Shown: one piece after another, positions 11,503 through 32,659 of the stretch | How the letters are laid out: the number at the start of each line of letters is the position of its first letter | Numbering within the stretch: the first letter of the stretch is position 1 | From: Trichinella spiralis | Taxonomy: Eukaryota; Nematoda; Enoplea; Trichinellida; Trichinellidae | DNA length: 64,000 nucleotides | Direction: 5' to 3' | Assembly: GCA_000181795.3 (NCBI GenBank) | Contig: CM012953.1 | Coordinates: forward strand, 5,704,110 to 5,768,109 | Translations under genes and position numbers: made by a program | Notes under the pieces: generated by a model | Seen by the model: the letters and a program-made list of their open reading frames with translations, nothing else | The model's database searches: none | Told to the model about the DNA's origin: nothing

Positions 11503-14335
11503 CAGTGTTTCTCAACCAGGGGGGCGCGCCCCCCTAGGGGGGCGTAGGAAGGTTCCAGGGGGGGCGTGAGAAGTAAGAATTTTTAGTCCTGCAGAGGTGT
11601 TTGAAATTCAGCTTGGTCTACTTCAGCTAAATTTTAACCGCCTATTTTTTCTGGTCATCTTAGTTTTAGCTTAACCGCGTCAGCTGTGCGCAATTTATAA
11701 TTTCCCTTTGCACTAAAATCGCCTTTCGAAATTCACCTGATGTGACGAGAGACGTGAATAATTTTTGAAAGAGGCATATACACGATATTTATCAAACTGA
11801 TAGAACAAAGCCGTATTTTGTCTAATGGTGGAAACAAGCAATGCGGTAAAAATTTCGCCTGAAGTCGACCATCACACTTTATTTTCTCATTCTTTCCTTC
11901 ATTCGACATCGCGGCAACACCAACTTTTGTCTCGTGTGTGCATATATTTGCTGTTTATTTGTTTCAGTTTTCAAGAGATTTTGTAATATCAGTTGATTTC
12001 AGATTGTCTGAAATCACATCAATTCAGGTTTGGTTTTTTCCGCTCCTTTTATTCTTATCAGTAATTAAATCTCCCACTATGATTATGGTTTTTAGCTTGG
12101 CTACTCATAATCGTGAACACAACGGTTTTATTACATTTCGCACCACGGTTGTTGCTTATAGAGTTTGTTATTATTTCCAATAGGCAAGTTATTTATTAGC
12201 GTACTGCTATGTACCACGAAGACATCCAGTTGGTAAACGAGCTGCGAAAACTAGTTAGATCGGATTATCCATACGACAGGCTGGAAAAGGAGGAAGTTAG
12301 TTAGTTAGCGTCTGTGTATATTCACATCATCAATAAAGTTATATTGGACGTTGGCGTGAAATACAATACGTACAATGGTGTCGAAAAAACGCAAATATGA
12401 TGCAGAGTACATCAAATACGGCTTCGTGGCTATTGAAAAAAACGGCGTTGAAGTGCCACAATGCGTTGTATGCCTTGATACATTCAGCAATGATGCTTTA
12501 CGGCCAACCCGACTGCAGCGGCATTTGCATCACCGCCATCCTGAGTTATCAAAAAAACCTGTGGAATACTTTTGCGCTGAAAGAGATTCCCTTTCTCAAA
12601 TGAGACTTGAGAAAAAAGTCAAGTATAATCAGGAGACTGTCAAGGCTGATAAGAGCATCATATGAAATAGCCATGTTGATTGCCAAGAATAAGAAACCAC
12701 ATACTATTGGAGAAAATCTTGTTAAGCCCTGCATTGTGAATGCAGTAAAGATTCTGCTTGGGGATGACATGGCGAAGCAATTTAAAAGTATTTCTCTTTC
12801 TGATTCAACAGTTAAACGCCGAATCGATGAATTAGCTGATGATATAAAACAGCAAGTTCTTGAAAAGGTAAAGTGTTCTCCTTTTTTTCCTATAAGTTGT
12901 GATGAGCCACAGACCAGGCAAACTGTGCACAGCTCATTGTATACGCACGGTTCATTGCAAATAACACAATTGAAGAAGAACTACTTTTTTCTGAACCACT
13001 GAAAACTACAACGAAACGAGCTGATGTGTTCCAAGCCGTGTCACAATTTTTTGAAGTAAATGGCTTGATGTGGGAAAAACTTGTTGGTGTATGCACTGAC
13101 GGTGCACCCGCAATGCTTGGCTCTCGGTCTGGCTTTGTGAAGATGGTCAAATCAAAAAACCCATCTATTTTTGCAATGCACTGTGTAATTCATCGGCAGG
13201 CTTTGGTCGCTAAAACTTTGCCTGATGATCTCAGAGAAGACCTTAATTTTGCCGCGGAGGTTGTCAACTATGTGAAAAGCAGTGCATTGAACACTCGATT
13301 ATTTGCGTCACTCTGTGAAAGTTTGAATGCTGACCACATGGCACTTCTCTATCATACAGAAGTTCGTTGGTTATCAAAAGGAAACATGCTTGGTCGGATT
13401 TATGAACTGAGAGAAGCAGTGGCAGAGTTTTTGGAGCAACGAGGAAGACGCACAATGTGTCGAGCTTTCAAAAGTGAACATTTTCAGCTTAGCCTGGCAT
13501 ATCTTGCAGATATTTTTGAAGCACTGAATTTACTGGATTTGAAACTGCAAGGAGCAAACGCGAATGTTATGGCTCACTATGACATTGTTCAAAGCTTCAT
13601 TGCAAAAATTTCCTTATGGTTAAAACAAGTTGAAAGAGGAAATTTGACATGGTTTTCAAGACTCAACGAGCTTTTCAGTGATAAATGTATCAGCGAAGAT
13701 TTGAAAAGAAAAATAAAAGGGCACCTTAGAAGCCTACAAGATGAGTTTTTTTACTATTTTCCTGACGTAGAACCTGAAAACCTGATATATAAACTTGTGA
13801 GGAATCCATTTTTAGTTAATGTCGAAGACCTTCCACACGATCTTCAAGAAGAAGCCATTGAACTGCAATTCAACAGCTTAGCTAAAGATAGCTTTGAAAG
13901 TATGCCATTAGAAAACTTCTGAGTGAAGTTACAAGCAGAATATCCTAAATAAGTTCACAAAGCTTACGTATATTGATTCCTTTTTCCTCAACGTACCTTT
14001 GTGAAACGGGATTCTCAGCTCTCATGACGCTTAATACGCAACATCGAAACAGGCTAAACGTTGAGAGCGACCTGCGATGTACCTTATCACCCACTCCACC
14101 AAGAATAGACAACTTAGTCGCAAATAAGCATTGTCAATATTCTCATTAAATTTTTATTGTGAATCATTCAGGAATGTTTTACTGTGGAAACTAGCTTGGC
14201 TTGATGCAACCATGAAGCAAAATGTTGCTTTGCGTACACTGAATACATACCGTACTACTTTTTATTAGAGAGGGGGCATTAACTGCCGAACTTTTATTAA
14301 GGGGGGCGTGCGCTGACACAGGTTGAGAAACACTG
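11503..14335. mobile_element. hAT-family DNA transposon, non-autonomous relic (2,833 bp)
   Basis: Terminal inverted repeats are perfect over 15 bases: CAGTGTTTCTCAACC at 11503-11517 and its reverse complement at 14321-14335. They are flanked by perfect 8-bp direct repeats. This end sequence is typical of the hAT branch that also gave rise to vertebrate ZBED5/FAM200-type genes. Directly inside the left end are G/C palindromes (11519-11534 and 11529-11542), and a G-run also sits inside the right end (14301-14306); such subterminal motifs are often transposase binding sites. The interior carries one transposase gene on the plus strand that is now interrupted. The region 11543-12374 has no further coding signal. 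Intact ends and target duplication suggest either fairly recent insertion or recent mobilisation in trans. Confidence 0.95.
12375..14149 (+). pseudogene. Broken hAT transposase, BED-finger / ZBED5-like
   Basis: The reading starts at 12375 with a BED-type zinc finger: CVVC near residues 30-33 and the paired His of HLHHRHPE near 50. Recognisable hAT/ZBED5 blocks follow: ASYEIAMLIAKNKKPHTIGE, VGVCTDGAPAM, IHRQAL, a TEVRWLSKG block, and a C-terminal dimerisation block STYLCETGFSALMT at about 13995-14040 that ends with a stop at 14147-14149. The gene is not functional as read. The frame changes near 12645-12660, again near 12905-12925, and again after the stop at 13920-13922; extra in-frame stops lie at about 13950 and 13970. 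The conserved Asp-Glu of the catalytic core is still visible near 12901. It belongs to the surrounding element and shares its boundaries. Confidence 0.9.
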
Positions 14336-19704: not shown

Positions 19705-20779
19705 ATGGATGCGGATAAAAATGTTAGTTCTTGGGAGAGCATATTAAAATATATAGAGGTGCCGGATGAATTTATTCAAGTGTAAGTTTAAAACTTTTTT
19801 TGCACTACTGTTACTGAAAATCACTTTAATTTTTGAAGTATTTTTTTGCACATGTTGTTTTGCCTTTTTTATTTTTGTTTTTTGCGTTTTTATTTTTATT
19901 TAAACTTAGGTATTTAGCGTATTAATGGAATATATGCAGCATTTATTAGTGTAGTAGTTTTTTGTTACAATTAATGAATGAAAGCTATAGAATGTATTAT
20001 TAATTTCCGCTGTGATTTTTTTAATGATTAAGAATTTCAAAGAAGTGTTTTTAAATTAAAGTTGGTTCTTAAAAAATTAATAAATTGCCGTCTGTCATTT
20101 ATTACGGATATTAGCGTGTTGTCTTCTTTTATAAATACGTTTCTTCTTTTTTACTTGGTTTAAATGGAATATTAATTTATACTATTGTAATTAAAGACAT
20201 TGTGTTTTACATTGGAATAAATTTGATTTTAGAAGCTCTAGTGGGGAAAGTTTAAGTTTCCTTAAAGATTTCAAAAAATGTTATGATAATTTGCGACAAT
20301 GTTTACCGTCAGCTAGTGTTGGCGAAAAGTCAGCGCTTCCGAATCTTCACGTAGACGGTTTTGATGAGGAGTCCATATGGCAGCAGGTCGATTTGCACAA
20401 TAGAGATCGTTTGCGAATTGTTCGTCAGGCTTTAAAATGTGTCGGTCATGCTGGAACTGTTCAAGGTGATGATGATGATGTCTCTTATTCAGACGACGAT
20501 GAAAAATATGCTTCTGATTTGGAAGTGAAAGGGGATGTGGACATGGGCACCAGTTTAGCAGAATATTTTAATGTTAGAAATGAGGATTATTCTGCCGATG
20601 AAGAACTGGAAAACAATGACGATGAAGAAGATAAAATAGATGAAGAAGATGATGATGAAGTAGATGAAGAGGAAGAAGTGGACGAAGAGGAAGAAATAGA
20701 TGAAGAAGAAGAAGATGATGATGAACAAATAGATGATGAAGAAATGGATGATGAAGAGTTAGATGAGACAGATGTAGAC

Positions 20780-20810
<31 letters not shown>

Positions 20811-22505
20811 AAAAGTATAATGGTACAAAATCAACAAAAGCGGATAAATTTTTTAATCGAGATGAAATGGAAAATTTTTTAAACAAAATGGATGAAAATG
20901 AGCGAAAAGCAGAATCTAGTAACGAAGAGTTGGACGAGTACGAAGAAATGGATGAGGATAAGGTGAATAATTTATTAGTAAATCATTTTTTAATATGGAA
21001 ATTGAATCATATATATTTAGGAAGGTGGAAAGCATTATCATTATTCTGAATTTTTTGATCCAATTCCACCGGATGAAAGTAAACAAGAAAAAAAATCCTC
21101 TTTCCAGAAACGTCAGGAACGGGTATGTATAATTGAGAATGAAGTATTTGGATTAAAAAGGATTTAATATTTTTAATTGAAAAAAAGTAAGAAAGGTACT
21201 AATATTGGGATTGATGCAAAATGGCTTGCATTTCAGATGCGAAAGACAATCAGTGAACTGGAGGAGGAAAATTTGAAAGAAAAATCTTGGCAAATGAGAG
21301 GCGAAATAATAGCCAAAGCAAGGCCGGAAAATTCACTGCTTTCTGAAAATTTGCTCTTTGACCGTGCTACAAAATTGCGTAAATTGAATCAGAATTTTTC
21401 AAATCTACATTTTTATGTTTTTGTTACAAAATTTTATTCTTTTAAGCACCAATAATAACGGCTGAATCGTCCATGACATTGGAGGAAATGATCAAAAGAC
21501 GCATTCGAGATGGAGTAATTGACGTTTGATATGACGTTTTATTCAATATAATTAAGCAAACTAATTTCATTCAGGCTTGGGACGATCCTGTTCGCAAAGT
21601 GAAGCCGATTACTGAACCGGCAGTTTACAAGAATAAGTTGATTTTGGATCAGCAAAAGTCGAAGCAGTCGTTGAGTGAAATTTATGAACAAGAATATCTT
21701 AAGAAGACTCAGGTGATGAATTTATATATTCCAAAGGAAATTTTTAAAATTATCAATTTTGAAAACATTTTCAGAAGTTGGAAGAAGAGCAGAAAAATCC
21801 AGCGCACGAAGAGATTCGCAAGGGTTTGAAAGATTTATTTTTCAAATTGGATGCATTGACTAATTTCTACTACACTCCAAAAACGGTGTGCATTTATTAT
21901 TTAATTATTTATTTTATGGATTTATAAATTGATTTCAAAGTTATTTATTCTTATTATTGTTTTGTTTTTGAAATTATTTCAGCCAGTTCCAGAATTGAAA
22001 GTGGTGGACAACATGCCCAGTGTGGTAATGGAAGAGGTGGCGCCAATTGCTGTTGCCGATTCTACACTTCTGGCACCGGAAGAAGTGAAGGAAAAAGCTG
22101 TGCATTTGCCAATGGCACCGGAAGAGATGACCAGAACGGATAGGAACCGTGCTAGACGGAAATTGAAGCGTATGAAACGTTTGCGTGCTAAGCATCAAGC
22201 CAACAACAATTCCAAGCAGTTGGTTCCGAAGGATAAGATGAAGTTGCTGCAAAAAGTTGGAACTGTTCGAACTGCGAAGGTAATATTAATTTTCTTTTTA
22301 TTTTTGTATTTTGTTAATAGTGAAAATAAAATGTTTTTTTTAATTTTGAATATTATAGACTTTTGATAATGAAAAGCATACGACAAAGTCGACGGCATTT
22401 TTCGAGCGCATGAATAGAGAAGTGAAAAGATTGATTCAAAATGAACTTGGTGAAAATGTGAAATCGAAAAAGAAGCAACTTTTGAAGAAAGTTGCTTTGA
22501 AATGA
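19705..22505 (+). CDS. mpp10: MPP10-like U3 snoRNP protein
   Basis: Nine exons: 19705-19781, 20233-20962, 21021-21122, 21237-21378, 21447-21514, 21575-21712, 21775-21885, 21983-22279, 22359-22505; all phases fit, 603 residues. MPP10 is the U3 small nucleolar RNP scaffold that binds Imp3/Imp4 and is needed for early 18S rRNA processing in the nucleolus. The N-terminal half contains a long Asp/Glu tract (about residues 130-205; GAT/GAA triplets at 20600-20810). The conserved block starts at FFDP near 280, then KRQER, RPENSLL, AWDDPVRK, SLSEIYEQEYLKKTQ, LFFKLDALTNFYYTPK, VPELKVV and MEEVAPIAVADSTLLAPEE, ending in basic helices. The exon 4 start at 21237 is set by the conserved MRKTISELEEE; an open frame extending upstream of it is intronic. 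Confidence 0.93.
20600..20815 (+). repeat. GAA/GAT low-complexity tract coding an acidic run
   Basis: A mixture of GAA, GAG and GAT triplets inside exon 2 of the MPP10 gene. It encodes a nearly unbroken Asp/Glu stretch, usual for MPP10, and creates Ser- or Leu-rich shadow frames on the opposite strand that are not genes. Confidence 0.85.
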
Positions 22506-24026: not shown

Positions 24027-27000
24027 ATGACAACTGAACGAGCGAAAGCATTCGAAGATATGAAGCGCAGTTTGCGCTCTGCAAAGGTAAATTTACCTCG
24101 CTTATGTGCTTCAAATATTACGCCGAATGTTCATTATTTAGTGATTGTTTGTGTGTTTTGCTGAATATTGCTTTGTTTCAGTTGAAATTGCTTTTGCATA
24201 TTTTTTTTTACTCAGTCAAACAGTGGTCAAATGTTGCTGCACATACTGACGTATTATTGATTCTGAAATCGATCAATATGCTTGCTTTGCACACCAAGCC
24301 AAGCGTGCAAATAATTCAAAAACACACTAGCATTATTAAACACACAAACGGCAGCAGTTTAATTCAAAATTCAATATTTCGAAAAGTCTCAGAAGCAATA
24401 GTAAAAAAAAAGTATTCAGTTTTGTATAATTTTTACTTCTGATCTGAAATCAAAATCTGCAGTGAAGAGCAATTGATTTGAAGTGGAGAATATTTTTTTT
24501 TCCACCTCGTTGCACACAAATAATTGGATTTTTCAACGAGCGACAATGATGACCACCATACATTCAATTTTTCAACAGCACTAGCAATAGCATTTCACTT
24601 TTCAGAGCATTTTAAATTCTTTGATCGAAATACTGAATTCAACAAACATACGTGTGTTTGTAATATTGTAAAATTCAAATTCTCAGTTTATATACACATT
24701 CTGATCAGTTATCGACATTAAATTCGACTACAGACAAAACAAAAACATTTGTTCGAATTCAATATTTTCGCGTTAGCTAGCTATTTTATTTTTTACTCTT
24801 TTCAAATGCAATAAGAATAAAAATATATTCTATTATAGAGACTCACAGCACGTAGCTGGATGACTCGACATACGGGTAGTGATGCAAGCTTTCGGCGTAA
24901 GTAAATAGGACAGACATCATGCATATTTTTTGTTCTTTGCTCTTCTTTTTCTTCCAAAATATCCGTTATCCATTTGTTTCAATATCATTTATTATGCAGC
25001 TATGCATCGATTCAGTCCTATTCAAAGAGAAAAATTGTTGAACTTGTTCGCTGCAAACCGATACCCGTCGACCGAAGTGAAAAGAAACCTTGCCGAAGAA
25101 TTCAACGTCAGCATTCACCGGGTAATTCATCTTTTCTTTTTTTCTTTCAAAAATGTTGTTCAATTCAAAATCTACTATATGCAAAAAAATTGAAATAGTT
25201 GAATAATAAATTTATATATTAGAACTTAAAAAATATTTTCTCATTTAATCCCGTTTCTTTTTTAATTAACTATTACAATTGGTGTTCACGTTAAATTTGT
25301 ACCTACTTTACCTGCGGGAGTCTGTACTGTAGCATTTTTGTGATATCTTGTTGAAAGTTTGTCATTTGGTGCGCGCGTGCGGTTTTTGCCCCCCCCATTC
25401 GGCTGCTGTTTTAAATTTATTTTCGTTTGATCTGTTTCAAAAGTTCACTGCATTACTGTTGAATCACGTTCAGTACTAATAACGCATTTAATCAATTAAT
25501 AAAGCGCAATTTTTCTGTTTGCTTTTTTCGGCTACTCTTTGACGCACTGTTACTTACACGACTTTTGTAGATATCTTGTTGGTTCAACGAAAAACGTCGT
25601 GCTCGAAATAACATGGAATCTTGCGGCAGTAGTGGCGGCGAAGGTAAGTTCTGTGGAAATGGAGAATATTTGTGTGTAATTTGTTCTGTCTGTTTTCGGT
25701 CCAACCGGTGCTGAAGCGGCTCCAGCATCACCGCCGAGTGTGCAAAGTATGTTGACTTAGAAAATCATGTTCCAGTTGAAAATTTTATTTTCGTATATTG
25801 TTTTTATCGTTTTGTTTTTTCTTTGAATTTCAGATTTCAGTCGCCAGTTGCTGAGCAAACGGCAGTATGAACGGTTGTCGACTTTGTTCGAGAAGAAAAA
25901 GTACATCTCCGCTACGGAACAAGCAGAACTGTGCTCAGAATTGGGCTTGACAGAAAGTCAAGTACGTCAATAATTGCGTTTGTTGTTATTGTTATTTTTG
26001 CTTGTTTGTTTTTTTGACGCGAGTTGGTTTAATATGCAAATATTTGCCAAATTAATAGCACTTTTCTTCAAAATTACACGTCGCACTTCGCATGCTGTTG
26101 TTGTTAATTTACTTGCGCCAATGGCATTTTTACCGCTTTCTCTTTCTCTCCAAGTCGTTGTTTATTTGTGGAGAAGCAGTTCAAGACAAACAACCCTTTG
26201 TTTGTTGTTTGACATTTGACGTGGAATTGTTTGTCGTAGCTGTGATAATTTTTACCATTCAATTTATGTTCGATGTTGAAAATATTCTCTACCCAACTGC
26301 AGTTGTTTTGTCGATTTCATTTCACAAATTTCAAATTGCTGATTTTCCATTCCAGATTACAAATTGGTTTGTTCACCGCCGTCACAGGCTTCGTAAAAGT
26401 GCTCTTGGAGTTGGTGCGAAACTTGGTGAACGTAAGCTTGTTGTAGTTTATTTAGCTTGATTTATTCGACGAATTGTTTTTTTGTTGCAGGTGAATTGTT
26501 TTCTAAATTTTCTCCGATACAGTTGACAGAATTTTTGCACTTCTTCAACAAGCCTGTAGCTCCATCCAAAGAAGAACTCACCAAAGTCGCTTCTGAGCTT
26601 GATGTTCCAATCAGAAAGGTGAAATCTTTTAAATAATTAAATAAATAAATAATTAATTAATTAATTAATTGTTCCATTCTTTCAGGTTATCAACTGGTTC
26701 AACAGACGAGCGAATGTGCCGAAAATTGAAGTCGACTTTTATGATATTGGTACTTGTTGAAAATTTAATATTTTTTATCAGCTTTTGGATTTAATTTTGT
26801 TGTTGTCAACTTTTATTAGCTGTTACATTTTTTCAGTTAAAATTATTTTATTACTAATCTGTTCAATTGGTGTGGTATATTTCAGAGCCAGGCTTGGTGT
26901 ATGATCAGTCTCCTGCTCAGTCGAACACCGCAAGTGGAGGAGGGCGTGTTACTGCTCGTTGTCAAGAAAGTAAATTTTGAAATGACAACCAAAAACGATG

Positions 27001-27575
27001 TTATTATTTATTGCTGAATGAATTAATGAAATGATTCAGTTCCGGTTGGCAACGAGATCACTGAAAGACAATTGGAAATGTTGGAAATTATGTTTGAAGA
27101 TACTGATGAAGTAGCTCCAGAAATGGTTACTCTGCTGTCTAAAGCGTCTGGTTTAACCCAGGACGAAGTAAGCTATTTCGTGTTTATTATTATTTGATAT
27201 TTTTAATTATTCTATGAAATGTTAAATATATAAATGTATGTAGATCGTTGGTTGGTTCAGAAAGAAATATACTGAAAAGTTGATGGATTCAAGCGTTCAA
27301 GCTCAAGAACTGAGTAAGTTCTACGTCTTTAACGTATCGACTGATAATACGCATATTATAAAATATTGATAATAAATTTTGCATTTTATTTGCTTAAATT
27401 ATTATGATCTGATTTTGCTTTTGGGCATTGTTGTGAAACAGTCTGTATTTTGGGAAAGTTTAAATATTTTTTGATTACAGAAGCGAAAACCCAATTCGAC
27501 AGTGGAAGCGCTTTGAAACGCGGCACTCGTGTTAAAAAGTTTAGGCACGATCCCATGTTTATCTACTATGGGTGA
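24027..27575 (+). CDS. Multi-homeodomain protein with four tandem homeodomains
   Basis: Thirteen exons, all phases consistent, 371 residues: 24027-24086, 24839-24896, 25000-25121, 25571-25643, 25717-25746, 25834-25961, 26356-26431, 26491-26618, 26686-26749, 26886-26969, 27040-27167, 27244-27313, 27481-27575. Four homeodomain-like units lie at about residues 40-95, 115-172, 183-240 and 275-332. Each ends in a helix with Trp-Phe at the usual 48/49 positions: ISCWFNEKRRAR, ITNWFVHRRHRLRK, VINWFNRRANVPK and IVGWFRKKYTEKL. The position equivalent to Asn51 is Glu, His, Arg and Lys respectively, so standard base reading is doubtful. Each unit is cut by a phase-0 intron just before this helix. Family naming is open: divergent nematode multi-homeodomain proteins (HOCHOB, ceh-100-like) or ZHX-like are comparisons only. 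The 30-nt exon 25717-25746 has a weak acceptor and is the least certain piece. Confidence 0.8.
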
Positions 27576-28342
27576 TTTCTTCCATTTTTTATTCAGCGTT
27601 ATTAGGAAATCTGTTCACAGAATGTGCTTTTTTTGTTTTTGTATGAGAAAACAGTTGGTGCGATGGTTCATCTTCATTTTTGAATGAATAAACAGCATTT
27701 CCGGATGTTCAGGGAATGTTTTCGTAAATATTTACAAAAGGGTGCTTGGTTTTTTTAATTTAGAAAATACGCAATTAATTAAATTAGTTGGGAAATGAAA
27801 TCAACAATGCGACCGAATATTATGCGCAGCTACATCACTAACATTACAAATTTTTATTTTAATTTATTTTGTTTACTTAGAATTTTAATCATTTGTGTGA
27901 ATTGCAAAAATTTCCATTCATGAAAATAATGATAAAGCACTGTTACGCCTGATGTCAGTGACTACTTTGTTCATCAAAGCTAAGATTTCAAGTTAATGAG
28001 CATCAATATTTTAAAATAAGGTATACGTTTCATGCCTTTCAATAGTATCATTTTTAACCTACCGATATCCGACATTTTTTTCTAATAAACTGATAATCAG
28101 GTAGACATTGTACTTTAAGTAATTAAAAACATTTTTACTCATAGTAGTCGAAATGTTTATTTCGATTTGTTTCGTAAAGTTTTCAAATTGAATTTATTGA
28201 AATTTGAATGAATGAATTTTGAAATAATTCCACTGCAAAACAATGCGAAACTTTGGATGGAGAAATGTGTTCAATTGTTCTTTTTCTTGTGGCATTTTAG
28301 CGTTAAAAAATGCTTCATTTTGTTAAAGAATTAAATTTTCAG

Positions 28343-28583
28343 ATGGAATGAATTATGAATGTGAAGACTGCGATTTTTTTGCAGCTTTTGATCCGAATGT
28401 TTTGTGTTTGTTTTCTCATCTCTTCAATGTTTCTGAAGAATGGGTATAGCTTGATTTGATTCATTATACTTGTGAAATTATTATTTTTTTTGTTTTCCAC
28501 TTCAGATGGAAAGTTGGATACAAGATTCAATTGAAATATGCCGAGAAATGCATGACTCTCACATGAAAACGATCATCAGTTGA
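28343..28583 (+). CDS. Alternative 3' exons of the multi-homeodomain gene, degenerate fifth homeodomain
   Basis: Two exons, 28343-28443 and 28506-28583, with good acceptors (TTTTCAG, CACTTCAG) and a GTATAG donor between them. The first is entered in phase 1 and left in phase 0, exactly like every helix 1-2 exon of the upstream homeodomains; the second starts in phase 0 with MESWIQDS at the position of IxxWF, and stops after 25 codons. The helix 2-like part is VLCLFSHLFNVSEEW. Exon 27244-27313 ends in phase 1, so it can splice either to 27481 (stop at 27575) or directly to 28343. This is inference from phase and pattern; no transcript is available. Confidence 0.5.
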
Positions 28584-30278: not shown

Positions 30279-32659
30279 TCAACCAATTCTGCGCTTGACA
30301 TCGACCGTAGCGAATTTCGGTTTCAGCTTTATCCGCGAAGGTCTCTTTTGAACATTTTCAGAATCCGACGAATCCACTGCTTCTTCAGCTTCTTCGGCTT
30401 GTTTCACTTTTTCAACTATATCTGATACTGGAGTTGTCGCTTCTTCAACTTTCTGCAATTTCTCTTCAAGTTGATCACTCGCGAAAGCGCAAAGGGCTGT
30501 TTCGGGTGCAGATTGAACAGGAGAAGAAACATCTTCAAAATTATCCTCTTCCATCAACACTTCGTAGTTGATCTTTTTCGACAAACGTTTCTCAAACACC
30601 ATCCGCTTTATAGCTTCACCGGGTGTGGCCGCTGTGCCTTCTTCGCCTCTTTTTCTGAAATTTCTTCGACCCTTACTTCCCTCTTCTTTTTCTTGCTCTT
30701 TCAACAACTTTCGCTTTTCGTACTCTTCCATAAATTCACCGTTCACTCTGATCCACAGTTTGGTCTTCAACGCCGCTTCTTCCGGAGTCAGCAAATATCC
30801 GTCCAGCTCGTCGTCATCCAAATCATCAAGCGTGTTCAGTTCGCTGGCATCGGTTTGCTGTGGCTCCAACGTCGAATCGACCGGTCCCTCATCTTCCATG
30901 CTGGTCATTTCAGAAGATGATGATGGTATTATATCCGACCACGATGGCAGCGACATCGACGACGCTTCAGCCGCTTCCCATTCTGACAACCGACTGGCGG
31001 TAGAAGATTCTTCGGGATAATCGACCGAAGCAACTTCATTCGTCACACTGTCTTTGACGGCAGTCTGCTGTTCGTCGTCTGACGACCAACTCGACGCACC
31101 GTAACGACTACGCACTTTCTGCTTCAACGCTAATTGCACCTTTTTCTCCGTTTCCCGAAGTTCCTCGTCAAACGGCTTCAGCTTTTCTTCCAACAATTTC
31201 TGAAATGAATTTATTGAAAAATCACAAATCAAACTGAAATATAATTCAAAGGAAAAAACAAACACTTCAATATAATAATAAAGCATACTTTCATTTCTTC
31301 TTTTTCCATGTTTTTCGTAAATGACGGTGGATCGCACTGTTCAAGAATTTCAAATTTGCAAAACTCGTCCAACGTAAATGATGCAGAAGGGGTAAGACAA
31401 AATTCATCCAGACGCTTGCGCAACACCCCTGCACCGATGTGAACAACACGAACCACATTTTCGATTGTCCTAAACGCTTTCATTCAAATATCACGTCCAT
31501 TCACCAAGATTTACAAATAATTTTCAACACTATATACCAACTATTTCATTCAACAAACAAAATTAACATACACACACTACATAATAAGCATTTTATCCTT
31601 ATTGAATTTACCCACTGATTTGGAAATTTTCTGCAGCAAATTTGGAAAAATTATATTCAAATTTATCAAGTTTACATACTCTTTTTAATAATCTATAAGA
31701 ACTTTTAATTCAAACGAGAGAACATTCGAACATAATGTTCTAAAAAACAAAAGAATTGTAAAATAACTTTTCAATAACCGAGATATTTTCAAATTTTAAA
31801 ATAAAAATACCGATTAAATCCATAATAACGTGCAGCTATAATAAGTGCTGCTCCGCACAGACCAGCTGGCCGTCGTCCATACGTCATCCAGTCGTTCTTC
31901 ATTCTCTGAATCAAACGCAAAGCGAGATGTATCACCTGTTAATAAGAACATCAGAATTTAAAATGCAATTAATATACTCCAATTAAAAATAATACATTAT
32001 GTTTGTGTAACCTGATTTTCTTTGTCCCCGAACCGTAGTTTCTGCGCAAAGCGGAGCACGTAAATGCAAGGATCCGTTGGTGGCAACTTCAAATGCATTT
32101 CACGAGCAAGGAAGCTAAAAGTGCGACCAAGAGTGAAGACATTCACTTCAGCCACGTCACTGAAATCGATCAACATCTGCGGCACGGCATTAAGACGGCA
32201 TGAAATATATAACAAAGATGGAATGACGTGAGACGATTTTCGCCCTCGAGTCAAACTTCTCCCATGCGCAATTTTGTAAAATCTGAATCCTGCTTCAGTA
32301 ACTGCTTGGGATAACTGCAACTGGCTAGCCACGTTTTCCATATGTTTTCGCACTTTGATGTACGTCAGTTCAGTTGATGACAGACTATTCATATTCTATT
32401 ATTTTTTATTTCAATGAACAAAAACGTGAAATGCACAAAACTGTAGACTTACTTTCATTCCAGTCAAGCTTATCGAACTACCATCCTTATGAATAAACTG
32501 GCCCAATAAAACCGACCGACCACCAGCAGTTTCATAAAATTCCACCTCGGAAACAATTGTATTTTCGCTAATTACGTGACCACAATTTCCACAAACATTG
32601 TTTCCCACTGTGCTGTCTTCCACCAACTCTCTGCCACCACATTCTGGACAAGTACTCAT
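30279..32659 (-). CDS. brf1: BRF1-like subunit of TFIIIB
   Basis: Five exons on the minus strand: 32659-32453, 32395-32012, 31935-31811, 31469-31289, 31199-30279; phases agree, 605 residues. BRF1 recruits RNA polymerase III to tRNA and 5S genes together with TBP and BDP1. The N-terminus has a TFIIB-type zinc ribbon with Cys4, Cys7, Cys23 and Cys26. Two cyclin folds follow, about residues 80-185 and 195-290, the second containing [23 protein letters not shown]. After an acidic Ser-rich linker comes the BRF homology block that binds [32 protein letters not shown], then [20 protein letters not shown]. The fourth exon starts inside an upstream ATG open frame; the splice at 31469 keeps the cyclin fold intact, so that ATG is not a start. 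Human BRF1 is 677 residues. Confidence 0.93.

What the first reader, a model, noticed from the sequence alone, without database searches (positions are those of the whole stretch)
24027..28583. Multi-homeodomain gene built from repeated exon pairs of fixed phase and size
Seen directly: each of four homeodomains is coded by two exons. The first exons are 122, 128, 128 and 128 nt, all entered in phase 1 and left in phase 0. The second exons are 73, 76, 64 and 70 nt, all entered in phase 0 and left in phase 1. The intron always falls just before the IxxWF recognition helix. Inference: the gene grew by tandem duplication of one exon pair, and since each pair is phase-symmetric, any homeodomain could be skipped without breaking the frame, giving proteins with different numbers of homeodomains. 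I know of divergent multi-homeodomain proteins in nematodes (HOCHOB, ceh-100), but not of this architecture.
Basis: partly seen in the sequence, partly recalled or inferred. Interest (0 to 1): 0.82.

Follow-up and report, generated by a model that had tools for sequence, protein, structure and literature searches.

The report
Worm gene with repeated homeodomain exon pairs
A Trichinella gene encodes four homeodomains plus a decayed fifth, each on its own pair of exons; a sister gene in the same genome has six built the same way, and none of them carries the asparagine with which homeodomains usually read DNA.

Summary
The genome is Trichinella spiralis by protein match. The four exon pairs, sizes and phases are as stated. 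Orthologues exist in other Trichinella species and in Trichuris; databases call most of the Trichinella ones 'Double homeobox protein A'.

The shared architecture argues for exon-pair duplication before the two genes parted, but sequence does not show that the units are each other's closest relatives. Skipping a homeodomain needs two exons skipped together; 0 of 14 database proteins lacks a pair. What varies is the C-terminal fifth unit. Exon-pair homeodomains are known in mammalian DUX genes, and a nematode protein with 12 homeodomains is known.

Least expected: 0 of 11 units has Asn51, against 58 of 58 readable homeodomains elsewhere in the genome. Best reading: HD1-HD2 form a tandem, non-canonical DNA reader; later units are drifting or serve as scaffold.

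The parts
24027..24086 (+). exon 1, start codon, phase 0 out
   Evidence: matches start of P0001
24839..24896 (+). exon 2, phase 0 to 1
25000..25121 (+). HD1 first exon, 122 nt, phase 1 to 0
25571..25643 (+). HD1 second exon, 73 nt, phase 0 to 1; recognition helix WFNEKRR (Glu at position 51)
25717..25746 (+). optional 30-nt linker exon (AAPASPPSVQN with split codons), phase 1 to 1
   Evidence: present in P0012
25834..25961 (+). HD2 first exon, 128 nt, phase 1 to 0
26356..26431 (+). HD2 second exon, 76 nt, phase 0 to 1; WFVHRRH (His51)
26491..26618 (+). HD3 first exon, 128 nt, phase 1 to 0
26686..26749 (+). HD3 second exon, 64 nt, phase 0 to 1; WFNRRAN (Arg51)
26886..26969 (+). linker exon, 84 nt, phase 1 to 1
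27040..27167 (+). HD4 first exon, 128 nt, phase 1 to 0
27244..27313 (+). HD4 second exon, 70 nt, phase 0 to 1; WFRKKYT (Lys51)
27481..27575 (+). coding part of the alternative last exon of the four-homeodomain isoform, stop codon 27573-27575
   Evidence: P0004
28343..28443 (+). HD5 first exon (decayed unit), 101 nt, phase 1 to 0
   Evidence: P0012; related unit in Trichuris and in the paralogue
28506..28583 (+). HD5 second exon with stop codon; MESWIQDSI (Asp51)
   Evidence: P0012

Best explanation
The gene encodes a multi-homeodomain protein of the Trichinella/Trichuris lineage. Shown: five units (four over the homeodomain cut-off, the fifth decayed), each on an exon pair of the same phases; a six-unit paralogue of the same plan; no Asn51 in any unit of both genes; HD1 and HD2 conserved between Trichinella and Trichuris, including their unusual recognition helices. 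Inferred: the ancestor gained its units by duplication of one exon pair, before the two genes parted; the protein is nuclear; HD1 and HD2 act as a tandem DNA reader of the DUX kind in geometry, with Glu51 and His51 in place of Asn51 and therefore an unusual base preference; HD3 to HD5, which lack Arg53 and diverge faster, hold partners or are decaying; alternative 3' exons decide whether HD5 is present.
Against: No binding, expression or localisation data. HD4 and HD5 are modelled at pLDDT 46-64 only. Positional kinship fails for HD4: z 2.0-3.5 with the fourth units of the paralogue and of T. muris. Sequence does not resolve one origin of the units (31/0, 28% of bootstraps); HD2 scores better with homeodomains of other genes (z 21.7) than with its neighbours (10.9), so capture of a second homeodomain is possible. 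The splice variants are database predictions, some probably faulty (P0001 carries intron sequence inside HD2; P0011 loses most of HD1's second exon).
Confidence: 0.5

Rival explanations
1. The units no longer bind DNA; the protein is a chain of homeodomain-fold modules used for protein contacts. Hench et al. consider loss of DNA binding possible for the first HOCHOB homeodomain (PMC4448998, passages).
For: Asn51 is absent from 11 of 11 units and Arg53 from HD3, HD4 and HD5 of the window gene; HD4 and HD5 are acidic (net charge -7 and -10).
Against: HD1 and HD2 keep Arg53, are basic (net +6 and +5) and are conserved in helix 3 between Trichinella and Trichuris.
Confidence: 0.25
2. The homeodomains come from different single-homeodomain genes fused together, and the shared phases reflect only the common 44/45 intron plus chance or the need for in-frame fusion.
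For: HD1, HD2 and HD4 score better with some outside homeodomain than with their neighbours; 44/45 phase 0 is a common site (7 of 22).
Against: Entry introns in phase 1, at HD residues 1-4 in 9 of 11 units of the two genes (reckoned from exon sizes), and the joint lack of Asn51 are not expected from separate donors. The best tree groups the 16 family units, though weakly.
Confidence: 0.15
3. The gene is a true DUX orthologue, as its database name 'Double homeobox protein A' says.
For: DUX4 is the best PDB sequence match of HD1 and the best fold match of the model.
Against: Five or six units, no Asn51, intron at 44/45, whereas the PRD-like homeodomains of this genome split at 46/47 (class by eye). 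The DUX double homeobox is placed in the ancestor of eutherian mammals (PMC3004920, passages), and Hench et al. see no evidence of direct orthology of C. elegans genes to DUX (PMC4448998).
Confidence: 0.03

Closest known systems
Mammalian intron-containing DUX genes (DUXA, DUXB, DUXC, Duxbl)
   Same: The two homeoboxes are split over four exons at equivalent positions, attributed to duplication of homeoboxes in an ancestor (PMC3004920, passages; one intron within each homeobox of DUXA also in PMC2211742, passages); tandem fold match.
   Different: Two units against five or six; DUX4 shows WFQN, with Asn51, in both units (alignment). The site of the DUX intron was not compared residue by residue.
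C. elegans CEH-100 (12 homeodomains), CEH-99 (4), DUXL-1 (3, two by intragenic duplication), CEH-83 (5)
   Same: Divergent multi-homeodomain nematode proteins, with intragenic duplication reported (PMC4448998, passages).
   Different: Apart from ceh-79 those genes have no obvious orthologues even in other Caenorhabditis (same source), whereas this gene is shared by Trichinella and Trichuris. Their sequences and exon phases were not compared here.
HOCHOB proteins CEH-91, CEH-92, CEH-93
   Same: Nematode tandem divergent homeodomains (PMC4448998).
   Different: No HOCHOB match at E up to 1 in the window protein; 17.0 bits against a cut-off of 26.3 in the paralogue.
Vertebrate ZHX/HOMEZ
   Same: Several divergent homeodomains per protein (PMC2211742, passages); a ZHX1 homeodomain is among the PDB matches of the family profile (3nar).
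   Different: No zinc-finger family in the Pfam scans; Homez model absent from the window protein and below its cut-off in relatives (16.3-20.1 against 21). That many ZHX homeodomains lack Asn51 is recalled, not checked.

Membership tests
Homeodomain superfamily | Match to the homeodomain profile, W48-F49 in helix 3 | tested here: met
   HD1-HD4 each over the Pfam cut-off and with WF. HD5 does not meet it: no Pfam hit, W48-I49; hhalign links it to the others at 87% over 26 columns
Homeodomain superfamily | Asn51 (usual, not strictly defining; recalled) | tested here: not met
   0 of 11 units in the two genes; 58 of 58 others read, of 69 hits tabulated
DUX | Exactly two homeodomains | tested here: not met
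   Five and six units
DUX | Each homeobox split over two exons at an equivalent site | tested here: met
   compared with PMC3004920 (passages)
HOCHOB | HOCHOB profile (two homeodomains with cysteine loop) | tested here: not met
ZHX/HOMEZ | Zinc fingers, or Homez domain above cut-off | tested here: not met
CEH-99/CEH-100 | Sequence kinship and exon plan | not testable with these tools
   C. elegans genome not held; no CEH protein returned, which limit candidates by length and shared words

The most novel reading that the evidence does not exclude
A lineage-specific transcription-factor family has multiplied a homeodomain by exon-pair duplication and, in all copies seen, abandoned the near-universal Asn51 base contact, with Glu51 (HD1) and His51 (HD2) then held fixed since before Trichinella and Trichuris parted: a tandem homeodomain with its own DNA (or RNA) recognition code.
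Probability: 0.3. Interest if true: 0.65.

Novelty: new variant of a known kind. Interest (0 to 1): 0.45.

Why it matters
It is an unusually readable case of domain multiplication by exon pairs: two paralogues in one genome keep the same intron sites and phases across eleven units while differing in unit number, and in the Trichuris orthologue one unit has lost its WF core. Because the units of both genes lack Asn51 while HD1 and HD2 stay conserved, it also offers a natural test of how a homeodomain may read DNA without that residue. The database name 'Double homeobox protein A' hides this.

Tried and rejected
Considered and rejected: chance phase pattern (the paralogue repeats it); DUX orthology; HOCHOB; ZHX/HOMEZ; prokaryote-type HTH families (in the window protein they stay below their cut-offs; in the paralogue the YdaS and phage-terminase models pass theirs with 35.7 and 27.7 bits, but the homeodomain model is far stronger, 128.9 bits; I take them as shared helix-turn-helix signal). 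A third paralogue was sought in the genome with the window protein and with the C-terminal 260 residues of the paralogue and none was seen; behind the two genes the rows are other homeodomains.

Led nowhere: papers with Trichinella and homeobox (20 of 65 listed; PMC11731790 concerns POU factors, passages), 'double homeobox' with nematode, Asn51 (and inside PMC4901127, no occurrence), ZHX with asparagine, intron position (listing only), Trichinella Hox cluster (listing only). In what I saw of these listings no paper on this gene stood out; only open-licence papers are held, and most listed papers were not opened. The third protein search, with the paralogue, returned only P0015 of T. nativa, but only the 7,990 candidates sharing most words were scored and the query has a long serine stretch, so absence from Trichuris is not shown. 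The profile search was cut at E 1e-6 by my own setting.

Limits of the Asn51 count: one search gave 81 matches. I left out 5 that lie in the two genes and 7 second-exon pieces, which leaves 69. Of these, 10 could not be read and 1 was dropped as a second row of one homeodomain, leaving 58. One of the 10 unread (C3:12154163) is probably the first half of a homeodomain whose second half (C3:12150927) was counted. Hits were collected with a profile that itself favours Asn51, the second exons were picked by eye among regex candidates, and three homeodomains occur twice in the assembly (L003/L004, L019/L020, L021/L022).

Full report
What is there. The window is G000:C1:5704110-5768109 of a 53.1-Mb genome in 14 contigs. 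The spliced protein identifies the species: isoform 1 ends with all of P0004 and isoform 2 with all of P0012, both T. spiralis. It has no Pfam hit, but it matches the C-terminal unit of the T. muris protein (z 9.5-13) and of the paralogue (z 7-8), and hhalign links it to the other units over 26 columns of helices 2 and 3 (probability 87%, pairwise E 4e-6). A 30-nt exon (25717-25746) lies between HD1 and HD2 and is used in P0012.

The paralogue. A homeodomain search of the whole genome showed a second cluster of hits ending at the same profile column. Read out by hand, it is a gene at C1:11622910-11619615, minus strand, 5.9 Mb from the window gene, with six units. First exons are 122, 128, 128, 131, 155 and 128 nt, all phase 1 to 0; second exons of 79, 76, 67, 52 and 82 nt are phase 0 to 1, and the last, 39 nt, holds the stop. 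HD1's entry is predicted only, since no upstream exon was found. T. nativa protein P0015 follows this model from within HD1 onward, with a shorter serine linker; it leaves out the last small exon and runs on into the next gene. So 11 of 11 units in two genes are split at 44/45 in phase 0. For HD1, HD2 and HD3 kinship is by position (z 28, 16-18, 21-24), so these units existed before the genes parted; for HD4 it is not (z 3.5 with the paralogue's HD4, 4-5 with its HD5). Unit number differs, five against six.

Orthologues. A search of 5.8 billion proteins found 12 Trichinella and 2 Trichuris proteins, and with a profile, cut at E 1e-6, one more, P0015. Identity of the window gene to T. muris falls along the protein: 49/55, 44/58, 30/58, 4/57 for HD1 to HD4, and 14/41 for HD5; in Trichuris HD4 has lost the WF pair. 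No protein outside Trichinella and Trichuris was returned, but candidates are limited by length and shared words, so more distant relatives are not excluded.

Duplication of one exon pair? The architecture says yes. Sequence is silent: HD1-HD4 share 7 to 17 residues of 55-58 with each other, and for HD1, HD2 and HD4 the best outside homeodomain scores higher than the best neighbour within the gene; for HD3 the neighbour is slightly ahead. The maximum-likelihood tree of 63 rows puts the 16 family units on one side of a branch with support 31/0, present in 28% of 200 bootstrap trees, with several very long branches. One origin is compatible but unproven. The 44/45 phase-0 intron is not special: 7 of 22 readable split homeodomains elsewhere in the genome have it, in NK- or ANTP-like sequences (class by eye), while 15 split at 46/47.

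Skipping. The four pairs measure 195, 204, 192 and 198 nt, so a pair can go without a frameshift, but the loss of any one exon of a pair breaks the frame. None of the 14 proteins lacks a pair. Two are altered inside a unit (P0001 with intron sequence in HD2, P0011 with most of HD1's second exon missing), probably prediction errors. Of the 12 Trichinella proteins, P0001 and P0004 lack HD5 and 10 include it, two of these (P0008, P0010) only its first exon. So the number of units may vary by choice of last exon; P0004 and P0012 are both T. spiralis and both list a longest contig of 135,995 bases.

Recognition helices. With W48 as anchor, position 51 is E, H, R, K, D in the window gene and E, H, K, S, E, D in the paralogue. 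In other homeodomains of the genome it is N in 58 of 58 read, of 69 tabulated (limits told under Tried and rejected). Asn51 as the near-invariant base contact is recalled knowledge; I found no text on it in PMC4901127. E51 in HD1, H51 in HD2 and R53 in both are the same in window gene, paralogue and T. muris. HD3 and later units lack R53, except the paralogue's HD5. Net charges are +6, +5, +3, -7, -10 from HD1 to HD5.

Comparison with the known. DUX genes have two homeoboxes split over four exons at equivalent positions, and the authors propose that tandem single-homeobox copies were joined (PMC3004920, passages). Nematode multi-homeodomain proteins are known, with 12 units in CEH-100 and an intragenic duplication in DUXL-1 (PMC4448998, passages with abstract; also PMC4901127, passages). 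HOCHOB and Homez models are not met. What seems new, within the limits of paper searches (mostly listings), is the family as such: five and six exon-pair units, the five-unit gene shared by Trichinella and Trichuris, no unit with Asn51.

Mechanism. I think it most likely that HD1 and HD2 bind DNA in tandem with an unusual preference and that the later units are contact surfaces or decaying. The predicted fold and the conservation of HD1 and HD2 are shown; DNA binding, nuclear location and the role of HD5 are inferred.

Noticed in passing
G000:C1:5805165-5820066 (about 72-87 kb downstream of the gene; L001, L002, L062): Three ANTP-type homeodomains that look like labial/Hox1, Hox3 and caudal (class names recalled from their sequences) lie near the multi-homeodomain gene on the same contig; other Hox-like hits are at C1:15.29-15.34 Mb.
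   Followed up: no
window 30279-31337 (-) and 20195-21046 (+): Neighbouring open frames encode a BRF1-type TBP-binding domain (89.1 bits) and an Mpp10-like protein (45.7 bits).
   Followed up: no
window 12906-13922 (+): A 338-aa open frame without Pfam match at E 0.01 reads like a protein derived from a hAT-type transposase (impression from the sequence only).
   Followed up: no
P0013, P0014 (Trichuris) and the T. spiralis paralogue: They pass the cut-off of Pfam DUF7645 (31.8, 34.3 and 29.8 bits against 27), best over homeodomain units, so that 'unknown' family is probably a divergent homeodomain.
   Followed up: no
P0001, P0011, P0015: Database models of these genes seem to hold errors: intron sequence inside HD2, a shortened HD1, and a fusion of the paralogue with the next gene.
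   Followed up: partly
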